IMG/VR virus record: IMGVR_UViG_3300048930_000159
Location: 1-35,500 of that record
Strand: one strand, 5' to 3'
Length of the DNA stretch: 35,500 bases
Origin: a virus
A program made the position numbers and the translations under genes. The notes beneath the pieces are model-generated. The model worked only from the letters and a program-made list of their open reading frames with translations. It did not search any database and was not told the DNA's origin. Positions 27,793-35,500 of this stretch are shown piece by piece. Each line of letters opens with the position of its first letter. The stretch's first letter is position 1.

Positions 27793-29463
27793 GTGTACAC
27801 CCTCGAGCAAGTCAGGCAGGCGCGCGAGAACGCGAAGCGCGCGGGCAACATGGAAGCCTACGAGCGGCTGTCGCAGATTTCGTATCGCATGGCCGGCGAA
27901 CAGGCGCCCGTCGAGCAGAACGACCCCACGGCCGACATGGGCACCGGCCAGCGTTTGCTCGCCGGCATCGGGCAGGGGATGACGAACGTCGGGCGCCATG
28001 CGGCGAACCTCGTGGGCCTGCAGAGCGACGAGCAGCTCGCCGACGCGAAGCAACTCGACGCGCCGCTGCTCGCCACCGGGGCAGGCCGGGCGGGCTCGCT
28101 GATCGGCGAGACGGCTGCCACCGCGCCGCTGATGATGGGCGGTGCCGGGGTGGTTGGGCGGGTCGGCATGGGCGCGAAGGTGCTCTCGAACCCGATCGCG
28201 CGCGGAGTCGTAGAAGGTGCCGCGCAGGGCGCGTTGATGGCCGACCCGGGCGAGAAGCTCGCCGGGGCGACGATGGGCGGCGCGTTCGGCGGGCTCGTGC
28301 CGGCGGCCGGGGCTGGGCTCGGCAAGGTCGCGCACGGCATCAAGCGCACGCCCGAGGCCGAGCGGCTGCTCGCGCAGGGCGTCGATCTGACCCCGGGGCA
28401 GATGAACCCGGGCGGGATTCTGAACCAGATGGAGGAGTCGTGGCAGTCCGTGCCGCTCGTGGGTCCGGTGATCCGCGGGGCGCGCGAGAACGCCCAGAAC
28501 TCGTTCCAGCGTGCGGCGAGTCAAACCGCGGCCGCGCCGGGTGCGAGGATCGCTCAGGGGCCGGCCGACGAGATGCTCGAGGCGGCCTACAAGTCCTTCG
28601 AGCCGCTCTACGATCAGGCGAAGGGCTTCCCGCTCTACCCCGGTGTGATGCGTCAGGCCGGCGGCGACATCCCGCTCGCGTCATTCGGCAAGCGCCCGGG
28701 GCTGCTCGTGCGCGCGGCACTGGACCGCAACGTGCGCGCCGACGATGCCACGCGGCGATCGGTCGGGCGGTGGCTCGACAATCAGATCACGCAACTTCCC
28801 GGTAAGGGTCGCGCGCAGATTTCGAGCGACGATCTGCTCAACCTGCGCTCGAACATCCGCGCCGAGGCGCGAAGGGCGGCCAGCCAGGGCGACGATGCTG
28901 CCGCGGATCTGCTCAAGAACGGCGAGCGGGCGCTCACCGACACGCTCGAGTCACAGCTTCCCCCGGACGCCTTACAGGCGCTCAGGACCGCGGACAGCCG
29001 CTACGGCATCTACAAGACGCTGGAGGACGCCGTGGCGCGCTCGAAGGACATGCCGGGAGGGTTCACGCCCTCGAAGCTCTCCGAGGCCGTGGCGGGCGCC
29101 AATCGCGGGCTGGGCAAGGGTTCGTATGCGCGCGGTGGCGGTGGGCCGTTGCGCGACCTGAGCGAGGCCGGGACGGCGACGATGAACGTGAGAAGTCCCG
29201 CTACGGGGCAACGGCTCGCGGCCATTGGCCTGCCGCTCGCCGCCTCCGCGGCGGTCCCTGGGGTCGCCGTCCCGGTCGGCGCCGGGCTGCTGGGGATGGT
29301 AGGAACTCAGACCGGCCGGCGTGCGGCGGCGGGGCAACTCCCAGCCCAGAAGCTCGCGCAGGCGCTCGAGGAGGCCGCCAAGCGCGGCGTGGCCGAGCCG
29401 TACCGCAATGTCGCCGCACAGTACCTGCGTCGAGCAAGCGTGGCAGGGTTGTTGGGGAACTAG
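27793..29463 (+). CDS. Large DNA ejection protein with membrane-active segments (556 aa)
   Basis: GTG start at 27793, one base after the previous stop. An N-terminal helix (LEQVRQARENAKRAGNMEAY) is followed by Gly/Ala-rich hydrophobic stretches at about 96-170 (GRAGSLIGETAATAPLMMGG, GVVGRVGMGAKVLS) and again at about 474-505 (RLAAIGLPLAASAAVPGVAV), which look membrane-active. The middle is helical and charged. The pattern and the place after a typical ejection gene indicate the largest internal virion protein. Its stop shares two bases with the stop of the antisense gene that follows. Confidence 0.65.
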   Translation: MYTLEQVRQARENAKRAGNMEAYERLSQISYRMAGEQAPVEQNDPTADMGTGQRLLAGIGQGMTNVGRHAANLVGLQSDEQLADAKQLDAPLLATGAGRAGSLIGETAATAPLMMGGAGVVGRVGMGAKVLSNPIARGVVEGAAQGALMADPGEKLAGATMGGAFGGLVPAAGAGLGKVAHGIKRTPEAERLLAQGVDLTPGQMNPGGILNQMEESWQSVPLVGPVIRGARENAQNSFQRAASQTAAAPGARIAQGPADEMLEAAYKSFEPLYDQAKGFPLYPGVMRQAGGDIPLASFGKRPGLLVRAALDRNVRADDATRRSVGRWLDNQITQLPGKGRAQISSDDLLNLRSNIRAEARRAASQGDDAAADLLKNGERALTDTLESQLPPDALQALRTADSRYGIYKTLEDAVARSKDMPGGFTPSKLSEAVAGANRGLGKGSYARGGGGPLRDLSEAGTATMNVRSPATGQRLAAIGLPLAASAAVPGVAVPVGAGLLGMVGTQTGRRAAAGQLPAQKLAQALEEAAKRGVAEPYRNVAAQYLRRASVAGLLGN

Positions 29464-29699
29464 GCTGTGTACCAGACCGACCAGGCGAGGATCGCGAGCG
29501 GCCCGACGATCAGCACGAGCGGGGCCGTGAGGTCGCGCCGTTCGGCGTCGCTGCGCGGGATCAGCGCGTGCGGGGCCGTGAGCCATCGCTTCAGCCGGCC
29601 GGCGGGCAGGGCTCGCGTGATGAGCCTCGCAAAGATGACTGCGGCGACGAACAGCAGCACGGCCGCGAAGGGCCGCAGAACGATGGCGAGGCCGTCCAC
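29460..29699 (-). CDS. Antisense two-span membrane protein (79 aa)
   Basis: The only minus-strand gene inside the late region. GTG start at 29699-29697; TAG at 29462-29460 overlaps the TAG of the ejection gene (29461-29463). Two hydrophobic spans are visible, residues about 4-24 (LAIVLRPFAAVLLFVAAVIF) and 60-78 (APLVLIVGPLAILAWSVWYT), with a basic loop between. The frame fills an otherwise empty 264-bp gap, which supports it as a gene. A holin/antiholin-like or superinfection-exclusion role is possible; nothing in the sequence decides. Confidence 0.6.
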   Translation of the reverse strand: MDGLAIVLRPFAAVLLFVAAVIFARLITRALPAGRLKRWLTAPHALIPRSDAERRDLTAPLVLIVGPLAILAWSVWYTA

Positions 29700-29727
29700 G
29701 GGCGGACTCTAGCACAGGAAACCAACG

Positions 29728-30378
29728 ATGGCTTACGACTCAAACGGCGTTTTTTCCCTCACCTACACCTGGGCGACCGAGGCGGCCAGCCCGCCGATCG
29801 CGATCTCGAAGCTCGACACCGAGATGGCGGGGATCGCCACTGGGTTGTCGCTGTGCGTACTGCGAAACGGCAACGGCGTTCCCACGGCCGATACGCCGTG
29901 GAACGACAAGAAGATCACCGGCCTCGCGGATGCAGCGGCCGCGACCGACGCGCTCAACCGGCAGACCGCCGACGCGCGCTACGGGGTGAAGTCGAGCGGC
30001 AACTTCACGATGGAGCTTGCCACGGAGGCTTCCGGCGGCAGCGTGCTCGCGAGCGGCACGGCGTACTGGACGAAGCACGGCAATATCGTCTGCGTGCGCC
30101 TGCCGATTCTGGTTGCCACGACGACCGATACCGGGATATGGCTGCGCGGAATGCCCGCAGACATCATCCCGTCGCTGACGGGCACTTACGTGCAAACATT
30201 CATCGTGCAGGGCGTCGTCGGCGGCGCGGCCAGTCCGGTGATGATTTATGTAAGCGAGACAACGTACTGGAGCCTGACCGGAGTCGTTGCATCGTTTGAC
30301 GGCGGGAATACGGCGCGCGGCGTCGGCGGGTTGAGTGGCGAGGGAATGCCGACGATCACGTATCAGGTTTCGGACTGA
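29728..30378 (+). CDS. Fibre-like virion protein (216 aa)
   Basis: ATG at 29728 with an AGGAAA Shine-Dalgarno (29716-29721). MAYDSNGVFSLTYTWATEAA is a common N-terminal for podophage tail fibre/spike attachment domains, and NRQTADARYGVKSSGNFTME is the trimer-linking motif that follows in many of them. The C-terminal ~100 residues are a small beta domain (SVLASGTAYWTKHGNIVCVR) as in short fibre tips. It likely attaches to the tail and is separate from the big adhesin block. No catalytic motif. Confidence 0.7.
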   Translation: MAYDSNGVFSLTYTWATEAASPPIAISKLDTEMAGIATGLSLCVLRNGNGVPTADTPWNDKKITGLADAAAATDALNRQTADARYGVKSSGNFTMELATEASGGSVLASGTAYWTKHGNIVCVRLPILVATTTDTGIWLRGMPADIIPSLTGTYVQTFIVQGVVGGAASPVMIYVSETTYWSLTGVVASFDGGNTARGVGGLSGEGMPTITYQVSD

Positions 30379-30779
30379 TGCTCCTGCTCGTGCTACTTGC
30401 TCAGACGCTCACGCTCGAGGCGGGTATCGCGACCAATGAGGTGCCCGCCGTGGGCGTGACGGTGGGCGGCATTGCGGGTCCGGTGGGGTCGCACTACGAG
30501 TTCGGGTTCGACTTCGTGGGCGACTCGCACGACTACGAGAGCAGCCCGAACGCAATCGGCCCGCGCGCGATGCTGGTGAAGACGTGGGGCAAGGCCGAGG
30601 CAGGGCTCGGGTTCCAGTGGTGGAACGTCGAGAGCGAGACATGCCAGTTCACCTTCGCGCTGCTCGCGCGCTGGCGATTCACCGAACGATGGGCCGCGCA
30701 GTGGCGACACGCCTCGAGCGCGAACTCGTGCCGGCCGAATCAGGGGTGGGACATCTTGACGGTTGGTTACTCGTTCTAA
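30378..30779 (+). CDS. PagL-like lipid A deacylase, outer-membrane beta-barrel (133 aa)
   Basis: The one-base overlap with the previous gene (TGATG) and a leucine-rich signal-like start (MLLLVLLAQTLTLEAG) suggest export. The C-terminus HASSANSCRPNQGWDILTVG aligns by eye with the PagL end H-x-S-N-A...PN.G..E: His111 and Ser113 match the catalytic His and Ser, and Asp125 stands exactly where the catalytic Glu is (14 residues after His). The protein ends in YSF, an aromatic C-terminal signature of outer-membrane barrels. Known PagL removes an acyl chain from lipid A at the outer membrane. The protein is shorter than typical PagL, and E-to-D is non-canonical, so activity is uncertain. Confidence 0.6.
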   Translation: MLLLVLLAQTLTLEAGIATNEVPAVGVTVGGIAGPVGSHYEFGFDFVGDSHDYESSPNAIGPRAMLVKTWGKAEAGLGFQWWNVESETCQFTFALLARWRFTERWAAQWRHASSANSCRPNQGWDILTVGYSF

Positions 30780-30791
30780 GGAACAACAACA

Positions 30792-31226
30792 ATGGGCTTC
30801 CTGAAAGAGATCCTCGCCTCGCTGATGGTGGACGCTTCGCCCGAGGATCGCTCGCGCACGTACCGGCTATTTTTCCGCGTCGTGGTGGCGGTGCATATCG
30901 CGTGGGCGTGCGGGCTGCTCGCCCCGCTCGGCATGAACGGGTTCGTGTTCGCGGGCGAGGTGGACGACAAGATCCAGGCTGCGGTCGAACCGATACGCGC
31001 CGAGCTTGGCGACGTGTCGGAGAAGGTCGCGCGCACCGAGGAAATCAGTAAACGGATCCTGATCGGGCAGATCGCCGCGCAGTTGCGTGACCTGAACCGG
31101 CTGCGCTGCACGACGAGCGACCATGAGGTGAGGCGGCGCATGGAGCGCGACATCGAGGAAGGGGAGCAGGAATACAAGGCGCTCACGGGTGAGCGGTATC
31201 CGCTCGCGGCATGCGGGGAACTGTGA
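30792..31226 (+). CDS. Single-span membrane protein with coiled coil (144 aa)
   Basis: AAGGA Shine-Dalgarno (30778-30782). Residues about 27-48 are a hydrophobic span (LFFRVVVAVHIAWACGLLAP); residues 57-130 are charged and helical (VEPIRAELGDVSEKVARTEE). It precedes the endolysin, so it probably belongs to the lysis cassette, perhaps as a holin partner or antiholin. No family is recognised. Confidence 0.6.
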   Translation: MGFLKEILASLMVDASPEDRSRTYRLFFRVVVAVHIAWACGLLAPLGMNGFVFAGEVDDKIQAAVEPIRAELGDVSEKVARTEEISKRILIGQIAAQLRDLNRLRCTTSDHEVRRRMERDIEEGEQEYKALTGERYPLAACGEL

Positions 31227-31227
31227 C

Positions 31228-31686
31228 ATGGCCTACACGCTATCCGCCCGCTCGCTGCGCAACCTGAAAGGCGTGCATCCCGACCTCGTGCGCGTCGTCA
31301 GGCACGCGCTCGAGCTAACCCCGATCGACTTCGTGGTGATCGAGGGGCTGCGCACCATGAAGCGCCAGCAGGAACTCGTCGCGACGGGCGCATCGCAGAC
31401 CATGAACAGCCGGCACATCACCGGCCATGCCGTTGACCTGGCCGCGTGGGTCGGTGAGATCCGCTGGGATATGGGGCTGTACTACCAGATCGCCGGGGCC
31501 GTGCAGAAAGCATCCCGGCTCACCGCGATCCCGGTGCGCTGGGGCGGCGCATGGGTCCGGCTGGATACGGCGACGAAGACCCCGGCGCAGCTCGTGGCGG
31601 ATTACGTCGCCTCGCGCAAGCTGGCGGGCAAAAAGGCATTCATTGACGCTCCGCATTGGGAGCTACCAGCGGGGTTGTATCCATGA
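31228..31686 (+). CDS. Endolysin, peptidase M15 (152 aa)
   Basis: ATG at 31228. SRHITGHAVDLAAW at 61-74 gives the M15 zinc motif H63-x6-D70, and the terminal APHWELP carries H143 with E145. VVIEGLRTMKRQQELVATGA is the usual M15 N-terminal helix/strand. Such enzymes are L-alanyl-D-glutamate or D-Ala-D-Ala carboxypeptidase-like endopeptidases that cut peptidoglycan cross-links. There is no signal or cell-wall-binding domain, so the holin is required. Followed by holin and spanin genes in the lysis cassette. Confidence 0.85.
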   Translation: MAYTLSARSLRNLKGVHPDLVRVVRHALELTPIDFVVIEGLRTMKRQQELVATGASQTMNSRHITGHAVDLAAWVGEIRWDMGLYYQIAGAVQKASRLTAIPVRWGGAWVRLDTATKTPAQLVADYVASRKLAGKKAFIDAPHWELPAGLYP

Positions 31687-31922
31687 ATCCAGTCCACACC
31701 CTGATCGCCCGCGCACTGCTGTCGGTGCTGTTCATCGCCGGATACGGATGGATCGTCGTCTCGGCGTTGCGGGCGGGTGACTTCTCGCCGTCCGTGAAAG
31801 AGGTGCTGATCTTTCTTTTCGGCGCACTGACAACCAGCGTCGTGACCATCGTGAACTACTGGTTCTCCAGCACTCAGGGGTCGGCGGACAAGACCGTGGC
31901 GATCACGAGGATGACCGAATGA
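31683..31922 (+). CDS. Holin candidate (79 aa, two spans)
   Basis: ATG at 31683 overlaps the endolysin stop by 4 bp. Two hydrophobic spans, about 12-33 (LLSVLFIAGYGWIVVSALRA) and 44-64 (KEVLIFLFGALTTSVVTIVN), and a charged tail with YWFSSTQGSADKT, a pattern common to phage holins of this class. It would form lesions in the inner membrane that release the endolysin. The place between endolysin and spanin supports the call. Confidence 0.75.
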   Translation: MNPVHTLIARALLSVLFIAGYGWIVVSALRAGDFSPSVKEVLIFLFGALTTSVVTIVNYWFSSTQGSADKTVAITRMTE

Positions 31923-32101
31923 AGGTCGAACCCTACTTGCTCTCGGACCATCTGGCCGAGGCCCTGTACCGGCTCAACCTCGCCCGTGAGGCCATGCGGG
32001 ACAACCCCGTGCGGCACCGCGAGGCGGCGCTGCACGCGCTGGTCGAGGCCGAGAAGTCGATCGCGCACGTCATCGGGCTTATTGCGGAGCGGGTCGAGTG
32101 A
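31919..32101 (+). CDS. Small helical protein in the lysis cassette (60 aa)
   Basis: ATGA overlap with the holin gene. Helical, with LSDHLAEALYRLNLAREAMR and EAALHALVEAEKSIAHVIGL. No membrane span. It could regulate lysis or be unrelated; no family is recognised. Confidence 0.55.
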   Translation: MKVEPYLLSDHLAEALYRLNLAREAMRDNPVRHREAALHALVEAEKSIAHVIGLIAERVE

Positions 32102-32481
32102 TCCCGCTCGTGTGGCTCAAGCTGGTGCCGTGGCGGGCCATTGCGGCCGGCATGGCGGTCGTGGCGCTGGTGTTCGGGCTGTGGAGAGTCAGCGAGTGGC
32201 GCAAGTCGCACATCGCCCTGCCAGAGGTACGGGCTACGCTGGCCGCTGAGATTGCCTGCGAGCCCCTGACGGCCTGCCAGGGACGCGCAGAGGCGCTGGC
32301 CGAGCTAGCACGCGAGGAAGCGGCCATCGCTGCACAGGCGGCGTTGGGTAAAGCTCAGGAAGCGGAAGCGAAGGCGCGGGCGGATGCGAGCGCGTGGCGG
32401 GCGAAGTACCGGGCGGCTATTCAGACGGATCCGGGGTGCCGGGAGTGGAGCGAGCAGCCGATTCGGTGTCCCGTGGAGTGA
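32098..32481 (+). CDS. Inner-membrane spanin (i-spanin, Rz-like, 127 aa)
   Basis: GTG start at 32098 overlapping the previous stop (GTGA). N-terminal signal-anchor (residues about 13-30, AIAAGMAVVALVFGLW), a periplasmic coiled coil (EALAELAREEAAIAAQAALG, KAQEAEAKARADASAWRAKY) and the typical Rz end CREWSEQPIRCPVE. Cys pairs at 54, 60, 114 and 124 fit periplasmic disulfides. It pairs with the lipoprotein encoded at 32619 and fuses inner and outer membranes in the last lysis step. Confidence 0.8.
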   Translation: MIPLVWLKLVPWRAIAAGMAVVALVFGLWRVSEWRKSHIALPEVRATLAAEIACEPLTACQGRAEALAELAREEAAIAAQAALGKAQEAEAKARADASAWRAKYRAAIQTDPGCREWSEQPIRCPVE

Positions 32482-32620
32482 GGTCGTACCCCATGCTCCA
32501 CGCGAGCCTCGCGAGGCTATACAGCGGGGCAACATTGAAAGCCGGGGGTGCGCCACGCGCTAACTCGGCTACGCGACGTGCGATCTGCAATTCATAAGCA
32601 ACGTAATCTTCAAACGCCAT
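32417..32620 (-). CDS. Candidate antisense protein between the spanin genes (67 aa)
   Basis: ATG at 32620-32618, back-to-back with the plus-strand o-spanin ATG at 32619-32621 in the sequence CATG, and preceded on the minus strand by GAGGTGACGC, a good Shine-Dalgarno. The translation (MAFEDYVAYELQIARRVAEL) is coherent and helical in its first half. The last 65 bp overlap the spanin gene antisense. It would be the terminal gene of the leftward operon. Reality is uncertain because of the overlap. Confidence 0.45.
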   Translation of the reverse strand: MAFEDYVAYELQIARRVAELARGAPPAFNVAPLYSLARLAWSMGYDLTPRDTESAARSTPGTPDPSE

Positions 32621-32864
32621 GCGTCACCTCATTCTGTTGCCGATCATACTGCTCTCCGGCTGCGTGACCGAGCGCATCATCGAGCGCCCGGTGCCCATCC
32701 AGCCCCCGTCCCTATGCCTCACCGACTGCCCGGTGCCGGATACCGTCCCGACGACCAATGGTGCGCTGCTCGAGTCCTGGCAAGCCCACCGTGAAGCCGT
32801 GGCTTGCTTCAGGGCGAGGCAGCAGTGCATCCGCGAGATGGTCACTGCGCCGCCGGCCAGATAG
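32619..32864 (+). CDS. Outer-membrane spanin lipoprotein (o-spanin, Rz1-like, 81 aa)
   Basis: Begins MRHLILLPIILLSGC: a lipoprotein signal with lipobox LLSGC (C15 is the lipidated residue). The mature part is Pro-rich (RPVPIQPPSLCLTDCPVPD), as in Rz1 proteins. In contrast to lambda, the gene is not nested in the i-spanin gene but lies 137 bp behind it. No good Shine-Dalgarno is visible, so translation may rely on read-through from upstream. It completes the spanin pair. Confidence 0.8.
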   Translation: MRHLILLPIILLSGCVTERIIERPVPIQPPSLCLTDCPVPDTVPTTNGALLESWQAHREAVACFRARQQCIREMVTAPPAR

Positions 32865-32967
32865 CCGCGACCGGGCCTGAGTTCGCCATCAGGTATACCA
32901 CCGCCGCGCCAGCCGCCAGCGCCACGGCGACGCCGATCCATTCCGTGACTTTAGTCGGTCGCTTCAT
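32842..32967 (-). CDS. Tiny membrane protein (41 aa)
   Basis: Minus-strand ATG at 32967-32965, TGA at 32844-32842; a GGGGGA Shine-Dalgarno is at the right distance. The start overlaps the stop of the upstream leftward gene (ATGA). MKRPTKVTEWIGVAVALAAG continues AAVVYLMANSGPVAA: one transmembrane span at about 10-28. Its end overlaps the o-spanin gene end by 23 bp, so the two operons converge here. Function unknown. Confidence 0.5.
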   Translation of the reverse strand: MKRPTKVTEWIGVAVALAAGAAVVYLMANSGPVAAIWPAAQ

Positions 32968-33464
32968 GCGTCCCCCGCTAGGTGGGCGTCGATGCGGTTA
33001 TTGAGCCGCGTGTTGTTGCACATGCTGCAAGGACAATCACCCTCGGTTGTGCCGTCATCGCGACTCCAACCGCGCAGCGCCTCCCTTGCTTCTCCTAGTA
33101 GTTCCCGCGCAACGGTTAGCATCTCGTCGTAATGTATGCAGGCGGCGTGCGCCTTGTCATGGGCGCGGAATGCGGCGTCACGGTCTGATTCTGCCTCCAC
33201 CAGCGCCGCCTCTGCGTTCTCCGCACGAGTGACGATCGGGGCGCGCTCCTCACGTAGCCCAGCGACCATGTTGCTGATCTGCGTAATCATGCCAGCGGCG
33301 TCTGGTAGCGGTTTCCAGTTGTCCGGAGCGCCGCACTTGTCGGCCATTGCGACTACCAATACACGCGCCTCACGTTCTGCGTCGGCCAGCCGCGAGCGGA
33401 GGGTAGCAACGGCAGTTTCTGCGTTATGGGCGCGTTCTTCGTAGGTGTCACCAAATTCACTCAT
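32964..33464 (-). CDS. Coiled-coil protein of the leftward operon (166 aa)
   Basis: A helical, charged protein (RAHNAETAVATLRSRLADAE, RAENAEAALVEAESDRDAAF) with a Cys pair near the end (CPCSMC) and the terminal motif NRIDAHLAGDA. The terminal (I)DAHLA motif recurs in its neighbours, encoded by an exact 22-bp DNA repeat. Such proteins are similar in style to Ea22-like phage accessory proteins. Function unknown. Confidence 0.6.
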   Translation of the reverse strand: MSEFGDTYEERAHNAETAVATLRSRLADAEREARVLVVAMADKCGAPDNWKPLPDAAGMITQISNMVAGLREERAPIVTRAENAEAALVEAESDRDAAFRAHDKAHAACIHYDEMLTVARELLGEAREALRGWSRDDGTTEGDCPCSMCNNTRLNNRIDAHLAGDA

Positions 33465-33771
33465 GGCTTTGCTCCATTGCTGCGTCGATGGCGGCGATCC
33501 TTAGCGCCACGCAATCAAGGTTGGCGCTAACGGCTACTGGGATTGCGACGTAGGCCTCATGCTCGTGCCGAAGCCACCGGGCATTCTTTATACCCCATCG
33601 CATCCGCTCCGCGTCCTTGCGCAGTTCGTCCACGTAGGCGAGCAGGTCGCGGCGGTCTGCAACAGGCCATGCGACCAGTCTGTGCGCTATGTCCTTCGAC
33701 ATATTCGCCTGAGCCTCAAACACATCGTCGTAGTCACGGTCCCGCGCTCGTATCGAGTCAAGGTCGATCAT
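33457..33771 (-). CDS. Modular early protein (104 aa)
   Basis: Starts MIDLDSIRARDRDYDDVFEA, continues with DRRDLLAYVDELRKDAERMR, then WLRHEHEAYVA and ends AIDAAMEQSHE. Each of these segments has a counterpart in a neighbouring gene: MIDLEAIRAR and DRRALLAYVDAL at 34961-35206, RKDAERYRWLRTQH at 33768-34199. So the gene looks assembled from shared modules. No biochemical function is recognised. Confidence 0.6.
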   Translation of the reverse strand: MIDLDSIRARDRDYDDVFEAQANMSKDIAHRLVAWPVADRRDLLAYVDELRKDAERMRWGIKNARWLRHEHEAYVAIPVAVSANLDCVALRIAAIDAAMEQSHE

Positions 33772-34199
33772 GGCTTCCCCTCCCGCGCAAGATGGGCGTC
33801 GATGGCGGCATCAAGCCCGGTAGAGGTCAGTGCACCGACCCCAGCGACGTGTACCGGCCCACGCAGGATGTTAGCGTGCTGCGTTCGCAGCCACCGATAC
33901 CGCTCCGCGTCCTTGCGCAGCGCCGCGTTCTCGGCGGTCAAAGCGTCGTGCTTATCCCGCCACTCATGCGCCCACCGCTGTTGTGCTTTGCCGTAAGCCT
34001 CGGCCTCGGCCAGCCGCTTCGCGTAACCGCTCGATTCATTTGCCGCCTGTTCGTTCAGCTCGGCCTCTCGCTTCCACGAAGCTGCGACCAGTTCTGCCTC
34101 ATGTAGACGCTCGCGCAGTGTCTCCAGATCACACATGGCGCAGCCCTGATAGGCGTCCTCGCCGTGCTTGTCGCAGCCGTAGCTTTCAGTCGTGGTCAT
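33768..34199 (-). CDS. Modular early protein with Cys/His N-terminus (143 aa)
   Basis: The N-terminus MTTTESYGCDKHGEDAYQGC then AMCD gives C-x2-H and CxxC, a possible zinc site. A coiled coil (LETLRERLHEAELVAASWKR) and HDALTAENAALRKDAERYRW follow, then IDAHLAREGKP at the end. The ALTAENAALRKDAE segment is encoded by a 38-bp exact DNA repeat shared with 34668-34964. The RKDAERYRWLR block is common in phage accessory proteins of GC-rich hosts. ATGA overlaps on both sides. Confidence 0.6.
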   Translation of the reverse strand: MTTTESYGCDKHGEDAYQGCAMCDLETLRERLHEAELVAASWKREAELNEQAANESSGYAKRLAEAEAYGKAQQRWAHEWRDKHDALTAENAALRKDAERYRWLRTQHANILRGPVHVAGVGALTSTGLDAAIDAHLAREGKP

Positions 34200-34678
34200 G
34201 GCTTCCTCGCTAGGTGGGCGTCGATGCGGGCAATCTTGTTAATCCACATTGACATCTTCACGCCAAGTTCAGTCAGATTGCATCCAACATCAGCAGCAAT
34301 TTGTGCTTCGTTCATCGCTCTGGCGTAGTCCTCCCGCACATCCCGCAGCAGCGCGTCGGCAGCGGCCAGTCTCTCCCGTGCTTTGCGCAGCGCGTCGAAT
34401 ACGCTCGGCGACCCTTGATCGAAGCGCCGGGCCTCTAGCCGCGCGCGTCGCTCCTGCTCGTCGGTCAGCCGCGAGCGGAGGGATTCGATTTCGTCGGCTC
34501 CAGCCCTGACCCGCAGCGCATACACGCGCAAGGCGTCAACGGTGCGAGACAAGCAATTGAGCCAATAGATGCGCGGACGGTCAGGCAGGTGATCGTCGTC
34601 AAACTCTGATGGCAAACCAGTCGCCCGCGCCATGTCGGCGGCGAGTCGGATCAAGTCTTTCGCGATGTCATTCGGCAT
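34196..34678 (-). CDS. Modular helical early protein (160 aa)
   Basis: I choose the ATG at 34678-34676 (MPNDIAKDLIRLAADMARAT); a longer frame runs into the upstream gene. Helical and charged with a coiled coil (ADEIESLRSRLTDEQERRAR) and the same end as its neighbours, IARIDAHLARKP, encoded by the 22-bp repeat. The start overlaps the end of the upstream gene by 11 bp. No family is recognised. Confidence 0.55.
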   Translation of the reverse strand: MPNDIAKDLIRLAADMARATGLPSEFDDDHLPDRPRIYWLNCLSRTVDALRVYALRVRAGADEIESLRSRLTDEQERRARLEARRFDQGSPSVFDALRKARERLAAADALLRDVREDYARAMNEAQIAADVGCNLTELGVKMSMWINKIARIDAHLARKP

Positions 34679-34964
34679 GGCTCTCTCCCATTGCGGCGTC
34701 GCGCTTGGCCCGCTCATCGCGGTACATCTGGCGCGTTTCCTCGGCCAGATCGTTCCAGTGCGGAGCATTAGTGAATCCCTGCGCCGCCGCCGTTCGGTCG
34801 TAAAGCGAACGGGCCTCCGCGTCCTTGCGCAGCGCCGCGTTCTCGGCGGTCAGGGCGTCGTAGTCTCTACCCGCAGGGCAGCACTGGCGCGGCCCTGCCA
34901 TTACGAGACAGAACCCGCAGTACGCGCAGGCATTCCCACCGCCAGCCAATTTTCTAAAGCTCAT
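34668..34964 (-). CDS. Modular early protein with Cys cluster (98 aa)
   Basis: ATG at 34964-34962 (MSFRKLAGGGNACAYCGFCL). The N-terminal CxxCxxC and later QCC give five cysteines in about 35 residues, perhaps a metal site. YDALTAENAALRKDAEARSL carries the repeat shared with the 143-residue gene. The end DAAMGESHAE recalls AIDAAMEQSHE of the 104-residue protein. Confidence 0.55.
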   Translation of the reverse strand: MSFRKLAGGGNACAYCGFCLVMAGPRQCCPAGRDYDALTAENAALRKDAEARSLYDRTAAAQGFTNAPHWNDLAEETRQMYRDERAKRDAAMGESHAE

Positions 34965-35206
34965 GGCCGCTTCTCCTTCGGCAGCAGGGCGCGGAGGTCG
35001 GCAAGCGCCCACGCTACGCCGTCAACCGTCCCGTCGTCGTACTCGCTAAAGAACCGGCCCGTCGCCGCCACGAGCGCATCGACGTAGGCGAGCAGGGCGC
35101 GGCGGTCGTCCGCTGCAATCTTGAAATGCACGTTCGCCATATCAGCGGTTGCGCTTTCGTACACGCCAGCCGCAACCCGCGCTCGGATCGCTTCAAGGTC
35201 GATCAT
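34961..35206 (-). CDS. Modular early protein (81 aa)
   Basis: MIDLEAIRARVAAGVYESAT and DDRRALLAYVDALVAATGRF are the same modules as in the 104-residue gene at 33457-33771, whereas the C-terminal half (DGTVDGVAWALADLRALLPK) is unique. The corresponding DNA differs at 1 of 26 bases in the AYVD segment (35082-35107 against 33632-33657). ATGA overlap with both neighbours. Function unknown. Confidence 0.6.
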   Translation of the reverse strand: MIDLEAIRARVAAGVYESATADMANVHFKIAADDRRALLAYVDALVAATGRFFSEYDDGTVDGVAWALADLRALLPKEKRP

Positions 35207-35337
35207 TGCTTCGGCCTCACGTTACGCTTGAACAAAATCGCCAGCCTCTCCATCCATTTCAGCGCCTCAAGGTGCCGGCGCTCGCGCTCGAGTTCGGCGG
35301 CGTCCCTCGGCCTCAACCAGTACGGAGCCTGGCTCAT
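35203..35337 (-). CDS. Small charged protein (44 aa)
   Basis: ATG at 35337-35335, TGA at 35205-35203; both ends overlap neighbours in the ATGA pattern. The translation begins MSQAPYWLRPRDAAELERER and ends in a short helix LKWMERLAILFKRN. It is a coherent short gene in a chain of coupled genes. Function unknown. Confidence 0.55.
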   Translation of the reverse strand: MSQAPYWLRPRDAAELERERRHLEALKWMERLAILFKRNVRPKQ

Positions 35338-35500
35338 GGGGTGAGCCTCTCGATCAGCGTATTGACCGTCTCGAGCAGCGTCTCGTCATCCCCGAACTCA
35401 GCCCTGAAAGACTTGGGCGCACGGGCCAGCGACGGGCCGTAGTAGCGGTTCGCCTCGGCCACGGTAAGGTCATCGGGTGGCTGTCCGCGATGATGCCAAG
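35334..35500 (-). CDS. C-terminal part of a small leftward protein (runs off the right edge)
   Basis: The minus-strand frame enters at 35500 and ends at TGA 35336-35334. It encodes 55 codons including stop after 2 leading bases; the end reads DDETLLETVNTLIERLTP. If the window is circular, it continues the frame that starts at 43. Function unknown. Confidence 0.6.
   Translation of the reverse strand, partial: WHHRGQPPDDLTVAEANRYYGPSLARAPKSFRAEFGDDETLLETVNTLIERLTP

What the first reader, a model, noticed from the sequence alone, without database searches (positions are those of the whole stretch)
32964..35337. Modular paralogue family in the leftward operon, built from shuffled pieces
Pieces such as MIDL(D/E)xIRAR, DRRxLLAYVDxL, ALTAENAALRKDAE, RKDAERxRWLRxxH and (I)DAHLA recur in different combinations in six adjacent genes, backed by 22-38 bp exact DNA repeats. 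This looks like ongoing gene creation by recombination between short repeats, of the type seen in fast-evolving anti-defence or host-takeover loci. The function of the family is unknown.
Basis: partly seen in the sequence, partly recalled or inferred. Interest (0 to 1): 0.65.

Follow-up and report, generated by a model that had tools for sequence, protein, structure and literature searches.

The report
Phage genes shuffled at coiled-coil linkers
A block of six small overlapping phage genes is assembled from interchangeable head, coiled-coil and tail pieces, and the same pieces occur in other combinations in phages that otherwise share no detectable DNA with it, with the swaps made inside short repeated linkers; this gives a clear picture of viruses making new proteins by recombination.

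Summary
Six overlapping leftward genes (32964-35206) share pieces backed by exact direct repeats of 38, 22, 21, 18 and 17 bp; five of the seven exact repeats of 17 bp or more in the whole window lie here. The 45-codon gene at 35203-35337 does not belong.

Six related phage lineages carry the same modules in other combinations. One gene (G005_4) equals window g4 to base 220 and then window g1, with the crossover inside a 24-bp shared linker. Module edges fall on recurring linkers (39 of 71; null mean 15, max 26). Shared pieces keep frame in 341 of 345 cases and are under purifying selection (dN/dS about 0.19). Two relatives show no nucleotide match to this phage outside the block, yet share 651-864 bp at about 94% within it.

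The proteins are head, long helix, tail (one AlphaFold model) and sit downstream of an ERF annealase, as lambda Ea22 sits downstream of the Red genes. Ea22 is the closest analogue in organisation, but no match to its Pfam family was seen. Best explanation: annealase-aided recombination at coding linkers builds chimeric early accessory proteins. The anti-defence idea is untested; function remains inferred.

The parts
32964..33464 (-). g1 (166 aa): middle module LRSRLADAEREARVLVVAMADKCGAPDNWKPLPDAAGMITQISNMVAGLREER..TRAENAEAAL, tail RIDAHLAGDA
   Evidence: middle shared at 92-94% with chimeric genes in G005 and G007
33457..33771 (-). g2 (104 aa): head MIDLDSIRAR..DRRDLLAYVDELR, linker RKDAERMRW, tail IDAAMEQSHE; 8-nt overlap with g1
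   Evidence: head 100% identical over 152 bp to G007_4, which has another tail
33768..34199 (-). g3 (143 aa): head MTTTESYGCDKHGEDAYQGCAMCDLE (Cys/His cluster), long helix, linker ALTAENAALRKDAERYRWLR, tail IDAHLAREGKP; 4-nt overlaps on both sides
   Evidence: phrog_4029, E 1.4e-5; helix 21-112
34196..34678 (-). g4 (160 aa, ATG start): head MPNDIAKDLIRLAADMARATG..ADEIESLRSRL, tail RIDAHLARKP
   Evidence: first 220 bp 100% identical to G005_4, then diverges at the linker repeat
34668..34964 (-). g5 (98 aa, ATG start): Cys-rich head, linker ALTAENAALRKDAE, tail SLYDRTAAAQGFTNAPHWNDLAEETRQMYRDERAKRDAAMGESHAE
   Evidence: linker and tail shared at 90-93% with G005_3 and G007_2 under other heads
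34961..35206 (-). g6 (81 aa): head MIDLEAIRAR..DRRALLAYVDAL with a different tail
35203..35337 (-). g7 (44 aa), in the stated range but not a member of the modular family
   Evidence: no significant match to the other six
35334..35498 (-). 3' part of a Ref-like RecA-dependent nuclease gene; complete as L121:614-934
   Evidence: PF16786 E 4e-19
33903..33940 (-). 38-bp exact repeat, copy in g3 (linker LTAENAALRKDAE); crossover point relative to G001_12
34815..34852 (-). 38-bp exact repeat, copy in g5; crossover point relative to G005_3 and G007_2
33604..33624 (-). 21-bp exact repeat, copy in g2 (LRKDAER); partner at 33900-33920 in g3
32976..32997 (-). 22-bp exact repeat, g1 3' end (RIDAHLA)
34208..34229 (-). 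22-bp exact repeat, g4 3' end (RIDAHLA)
33380..33403 (-). 24-bp linker repeat (one mismatch) in g1, LRSRLAD; crossover into G005_4
34459..34482 (-). 24-bp linker repeat in g4, LRSRLTD; crossover into G005_4
33629..33657 (-). 29-bp repeat (93%) in g2, DRRDLLAYVD; partner 35079-35107 in g6; module edge relative to G007_4 at 33620
33741..33777 (-). 37-bp repeat (89%) over the g2 start and g3/g2 junction; partner 35176-35212 at the g6 start

Best explanation
The block is a recombinational mosaic of small early accessory genes. Each gene encodes a short head, a long alpha-helix and a tail. The helix-coding linkers (LTAENAALRKDAERYRW, ESLRSRLAEAD, ERALIVARAENAEAAL, DRRALLAYVDELR) and the tail/start junctions are repeated as near-identical DNA in many genes of a pool shared by unrelated phages. 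When two such phages meet in one cell, the linkers give 15-40 bp of homology. The phage's own annealase (ERF type in five of the six genomes whose upstream region is held) most likely joins the molecules there. Because the linker lies in the same frame and in the same helix, the product is an open, continuous helical chimera that joins the head of one gene to the tail of another. Genes overlap by 4, 8 or 11 nt, so each cassette also brings its translational coupling. Selection keeps the module bodies. Shown: modularity, junctions at linkers, frame keeping, purifying selection, sharing between otherwise unrelated backbones. Inferred: ERF as the agent; oligomerisation by the helix; a role like lambda Ea22, in which tails bind host factors and tune the early infection or lysogeny outcome.
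For: Repeats far above chance. Same modules in different combinations in six related lineages. Clean crossover: G005_4 equals g4 to base 220 and follows g1 from base 197, both matching in the 24-bp linker. Equivalent edges at the linkers of g2, g3 and g5. Edges of long shared segments carry recurring linkers in 39 of 71 cases against a null mean of 15 and maximum of 26 in 5000 draws; the result holds on leaving out any one genome, at other word lengths and at a longer minimum segment. 341 of 345 shared segments keep frame. pN/pS 0.22, dN/dS about 0.19. G005 and G007 have no blastn match to the window plus its extension L121 outside the block, but 864 and 651 bases at about 94% inside it. ERF in L121 (same phage, 100% over 778 bp), G001, G006, G004 and G005. 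Arrangements identical in separate metagenome assemblies. One long helix at pLDDT 96-98 over residues 31-100 of g3, containing the linker.
Against: G007 and G008 show no ERF in the 12 kb examined, only an Enc34-type ssDNA-binding protein, so ERF is not proved necessary. 32 of 71 edges carry no exact 15-mer repeat, so some joins were made otherwise or have decayed. Edges in one gene family are not fully independent events. No function was found by any family search, and the head and tail parts of the g3 model are of low confidence.
Confidence: 0.75

Rival explanations
1. Anti-defence locus: the chimeras are inhibitors or decoys of host defence systems, and shuffling follows the host's changing defences.
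For: Small early-operon genes, rapid turnover and a shared pool between phages fit an arms-race locus; the mechanism of shuffling would be the same.
Against: No match to a known anti-defence or defence partner beyond generic coiled coils. Module bodies are under purifying, not diversifying, selection. No host is known for these contigs.
Confidence: 0.25
2. A dedicated diversity generator (site-specific recombinase, shufflon or retroelement) rearranges the cassettes.
For: Repeated short units at module joints look like recombination sites.
Against: The repeats are direct coding linkers of several unrelated sequences and variable length, not one fixed site. None of the window and L121 proteins scanned with Pfam is a recombinase of this kind or a reverse transcriptase (not every ORF was scanned). 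Arrangements are identical within a phage type across assemblies.
Confidence: 0.07
3. Old gene duplication with conserved coiled-coil motifs kept by protein-level selection, without recombination.
For: The tail motif LRKDAERYRWLR..IDAAM is conserved in many Pseudomonas phages and prophages, normally once per locus.
Against: Synonymous sites in the repeats are identical, flanks change abruptly at the linkers, and whole modules are 95-100% identical between otherwise unrelated genomes.
Confidence: 0.03
4. Chimeric metagenome assemblies joined at short repeats.
For: All close relatives are IMG/VR contigs, several with neighbouring study numbers; no cultured phage in the collection carries the two chimeric genes tested.
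Against: Identical arrangements in separate assemblies: G007 and G008 1685/1685 bp, G001 and L153 899/899, G002 and G003 1300/1300; window and G009 identical over 778 bp. Frame kept in 341 of 345 segments. Repeats of 17-38 bp are shorter than the k-mers usual in metagenome assembly (own knowledge).
Confidence: 0.05

Closest known systems
Ea22 (Ead/Ea22, IPR025153) of lambda and Stx phages, exo-xis region
   Same: Early-operon accessory protein made of a short N-terminal part, a coiled coil and interchangeable C-terminal domains, one of them DUF551; described as mosaic (PMC10834534, PMC7093339). The gene lies downstream of the phage recombination genes. A DUF551 gene also sits in the G001 block.
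   Different: No match to the Ead_Ea22 profile was seen. Ea22 occurs as one to three variants per genome with a common N-terminus; here three to nine tandem chimeras per phage have many heads and tails.
Phage protein domain mosaicism (Smug et al. 2023, PMC10684548)
   Same: Ongoing shuffling of protein fragments between unrelated phages.
   Different: That work centres on known functional classes and expects more in accessory proteins of unknown function; here the case is an uncharacterised tandem array with junctions resolved to a few bases in coding linkers.
Rad52-like recombinase mosaicism (De Paepe et al. 2014, PMC3945230)
   Same: Phage annealases exchange diverged or short homologies; small gene fragments move more often than full modules.
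   Different: There the traces were genome-wide; here homology is concentrated in repeated linkers inside one paralogous gene block.
PHROG phrog_4029 (unknown function)
   Same: Matches 9 of 38 block proteins, in g3 through the RYRWLR..IDAAM tail.
   Different: Elsewhere the motif occurs at most once in each of the distant phage and prophage loci examined, without the repeat array.

Membership tests
Ead/Ea22 (PF13935, IPR025153) | Match to the family profile | tested here: not met
   38 block proteins scanned; Ead_Ea22 is not among the 25 families listed (of 58 at E up to 0.1), nor in the individual scans of the window genes
Ead/Ea22 (PF13935, IPR025153) | Head, central coiled coil, variable C-terminal domain | tested here: met
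   helix 21-112 and C-terminal helix in g3; tails vary. One member modelled only; coiled-coil pairing itself inferred
Ead/Ea22 (PF13935, IPR025153) | Early operon, downstream of recombination genes | tested here: met
   ERF, then NinB-like or nuclease genes, then the block; early expression itself not tested
Ead/Ea22 (PF13935, IPR025153) | Pro-lysogenic activity | not testable with these tools
   Needs a culturable phage
phrog_4029 | Profile match | tested here: met
   g3 E 1.4e-5; 9 of 38 block proteins; in g3 only the C-terminal half, so the family covers a module, not the genes
Domain-shuffled (mosaic) phage proteins | Fragments of high identity in otherwise unrelated proteins | tested here: met
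Known defence-associated proteins (PADLOC) and their inhibitors | Profile match with a specific fold | tested here: inconclusive
   isolated hits to JetC/MukB-like and other models, one member each; PADLOC lists defence systems, not their inhibitors
Diversity-generating retroelement or shufflon | Reverse transcriptase or site-specific invertase with a fixed site | tested here: not met
   none among the window and L121 proteins scanned; repeats are several different direct linkers

The most novel reading that the evidence does not exclude
The block is a specialised combinatorial protein-making locus: several different coding linkers, kept near-identical in DNA sequence and helix register across unrelated phages, act as standard joints so that heads, middles and tails from a shared pool can be recombined by phage annealases into working chimeras, a bacterial-virus counterpart of exon shuffling without introns.
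Probability: 0.3. Interest if true: 0.8.

Novelty: new variant of a known kind. Interest (0 to 1): 0.6.

Why it matters
Mosaic phage genomes are well known, but how new proteins arise at the joints is seldom visible. Here parents and product can be lined up to within a few bases, with the joint in a helical linker that keeps frame and helix. This gives a testable model of protein birth by linker recombination, predicts the architecture of many unannotated early phage proteins, and turns a question usually argued from genome-wide statistics (homology-driven or random joins) into a countable one.

Tried and rejected
Pfam, NCBIfam and PADLOC gave no functional assignment. The PDB sequence search with the tail profile gave nothing. 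AlphaFold on the tail alone gave two helices with a loose middle (mean pLDDT 76); fold searches were not run because a long helix with low-confidence ends would give meaningless matches. Rfam found no RNA in window 28000-35500, and promoter and terminator scans were at chance. Phage records hold no relative of two chimeric genes and only weak partial relatives of g3; blastn of window 28000-35500 against them gave 27 records, of which the 20 listed all match at the endolysin. An exact 21-bp scan for the RIDAHLA repeat in viral contigs found nothing, so that repeat is not shared exactly by other contigs there. Two paper searches were empty.

Full report
WHAT WAS CLAIMED AND WHAT IS THERE. The window is a 35.5-kb viral contig (G000) with a terminase (Sf6-type small subunit; large subunit), a portal (relatives include Myxococcus phages Mx8 and Mx9) and rightward late genes. 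A leftward block of six overlapping genes, g1-g6 (32964-35206), meets the rightward lysis genes head to head. Shuffling codons inside the genes gives longest repeats of mostly 10-13 bp and never more than 17. Five of the seven exact repeats of at least 17 bp in the entire window are in this block. The gene at 35203-35337 shares no module and should be left out.

EXTENSION OF THE CONTIG. A second contig (G009, 5.2 kb) is identical to the window over window 34721-35498 and continues to the right. It shows the rest of the leftward operon: SNF2-like helicase, N6/N4 DNA methylase, an ERF annealase, small genes, a Ref-like RecA-dependent nuclease, then g7 and the block.

RELATIVES. Scans of viral contigs found close relatives of single modules on nine contigs, later joined by L153, L156 and L159. 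G007/G008, G002/G003 and G001/L153 are pairs with identical blocks from different assemblies. The six distinct blocks are G001, G003, G004, G005, G006 and G007. Gene number differs (from 3 modular genes in G007 to about 9 in G006) and so does module order. The head MIDLD..DRRxLLAYVDEL is followed by different parts in g2, g6, G007_4, G005_3, G001_10, G001_14 and G004_2. The tail PSVQSHIRKH..ESRIDxHLARQP stands under different heads in G001_13 and G006_11 (98% over 216 bp). The tail of G005_4 recurs in G006_12 under the head used by g3.

JUNCTIONS. G005_4 is the clearest case. It is identical to g4 for 220 bp, and from base 197 it follows g1 at 94% for 204 bp; the 24-bp overlap is the repeat CCCTCCGCTCGCGGCTG(A/G)CCGACG, and the one discriminating base places the switch in the last six bases. 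Further on it leaves g1 at another repeat, GCGGAGAACGCAGAGGCGGCGCTGG. g3 and G001_12 agree (96%) to base 283, inside the 38-bp repeat. g2 and G007_4 are identical to base 152, the end of the LLAYVDELR repeat. g5 joins G005_3 and G007_2 at the start of the 38-bp repeat.

STATISTICS. Among 71 internal edges of long shared segments (at least 60 bp and 85% identity), 39 carry a 15-mer that recurs in genes not sharing the long segment; random positions in the same genes give 15 on average and 26 at most in 5000 draws. The excess persists when any one genome is left out, with 12- or 18-mers, and with a 90-bp minimum length, where it is 35 of 44 against 10.6. The edges are not all independent, since one crossover can be inherited by several genes; the leave-one-out result limits but does not remove this. 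Of 345 shared segments 341 are in the same frame. Pooled pN/pS is 0.22 and dN/dS about 0.19 (pairs overlap, so this is descriptive). The genes are therefore constrained as protein-coding sequence.

HORIZONTAL POOL. Against the window plus extension (39,952 bp), G007 (47,998 bp, all of it searched) and G005 (9.6 kb) have no blastn match outside the block, but share 651 and 864 window bases at about 94% within it. G001 shares a backbone at 83% while its block segments average 91%, up to 97%. Modules thus move between otherwise unrelated phages more recently than the backbones diverged.

ARCHITECTURE AND MECHANISM. AlphaFold gives g3 one helix, residues 21-112, at pLDDT 96-98 over residues 31-100, with a weakly modelled Cys/His head and a short C-terminal helix. 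The linker ALTAENAALRKDAE (residues 86-99) lies inside the helix, so a swap at this point keeps a continuous helix; that the helix is a coiled coil and oligomerises is inferred. Adjacent genes overlap by 4 nt in 38 of 58 neighbouring pairs, by 8 in five and by 11 in six (gene calls by a simple scoring script, conserved flanking genes included). ERF annealases are encoded by the window phage (L121), G001, G006, G004 and G005; G003's upstream region is not held; G007 has an Enc34-type ssDNA-binding protein and no ERF in the 12 kb examined. Work in E. coli shows that Rad52-like phage recombinases exchange short and diverged sequences (PMC3945230). I therefore infer annealase-aided joining at linkers followed by selection for working chimeras.

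WHAT IT WORKS LIKE, AND WHAT IT IS. Lambda Ea22 is an early protein with a short N-terminus, a coiled coil and interchangeable C-terminal domains, one variant carrying DUF551, and is pro-lysogenic; its authors propose a repertoire of C-terminal domains acting on the same host process (PMC10834534, PMC7093339). Position, architecture and mosaicism match; a DUF551 gene lies in the G001 block; G006 and G001 carry S24-type repressor or Cro-type genes, suggesting temperate phages. But Ead_Ea22 was not among the families listed for the 38 proteins (25 of 58 families shown), so I do not file the family under Ea22. phrog_4029 matches only a module. That tail is common in Pseudomonas phages and prophages, usually once per locus and without the repeat array.

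LIMITS. All close relatives are metagenomic, host unknown. Function is not shown. Anti-defence remains possible and untested. No reverse transcriptase or invertase was found among the proteins scanned, but not every ORF was scanned.

Noticed in passing
L035:5243-6351: In another phage contig (IMGVR 3300009151_003500) five gene junctions carry the same 18-23 bp, GAAGGAGTGCGGGAAATGA (end of ..KECGK, ribosome site and next ATG), a repeated gene-junction cassette beside a RYRWLR-tail gene.
   Followed up: partly
L026:4193, 5875, 6001: A 110-kb contig repeats an exact 18-25 bp coiled-coil linker (AEIAALRK) in and around small genes, a smaller version of the same pattern in another phage.
   Followed up: partly
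L159:5875-6321: A phage with dUTPase-like and deaminase-like genes carries one lone chimera sharing its head with L156:6937-7386, its middle with G006_7/G006_9 and a tail piece with G007_3.
   Followed up: partly
L121:2767-5021: The window phage's early operon carries a SNF2-like helicase next to an N6/N4 DNA methylase; the top phage-record relative of the helicase is EBPR podovirus 2.
   Followed up: no
window 11760 and 11910: A 21-bp exact direct repeat (CGTCGGTCGAGCGCGACCTCG), 150 bp apart, in the structural gene region.
   Followed up: no
L124:5802-6041: An 80-aa low-complexity protein made mostly of G, Y, D and N (GYGYGDGDGYGYG..) in the early region of G005.
   Followed up: no
L127:1630-2358: A pentapeptide-repeat-like protein (ANLAGAYLAGADLAG..) in the early region of G001.
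   Followed up: no
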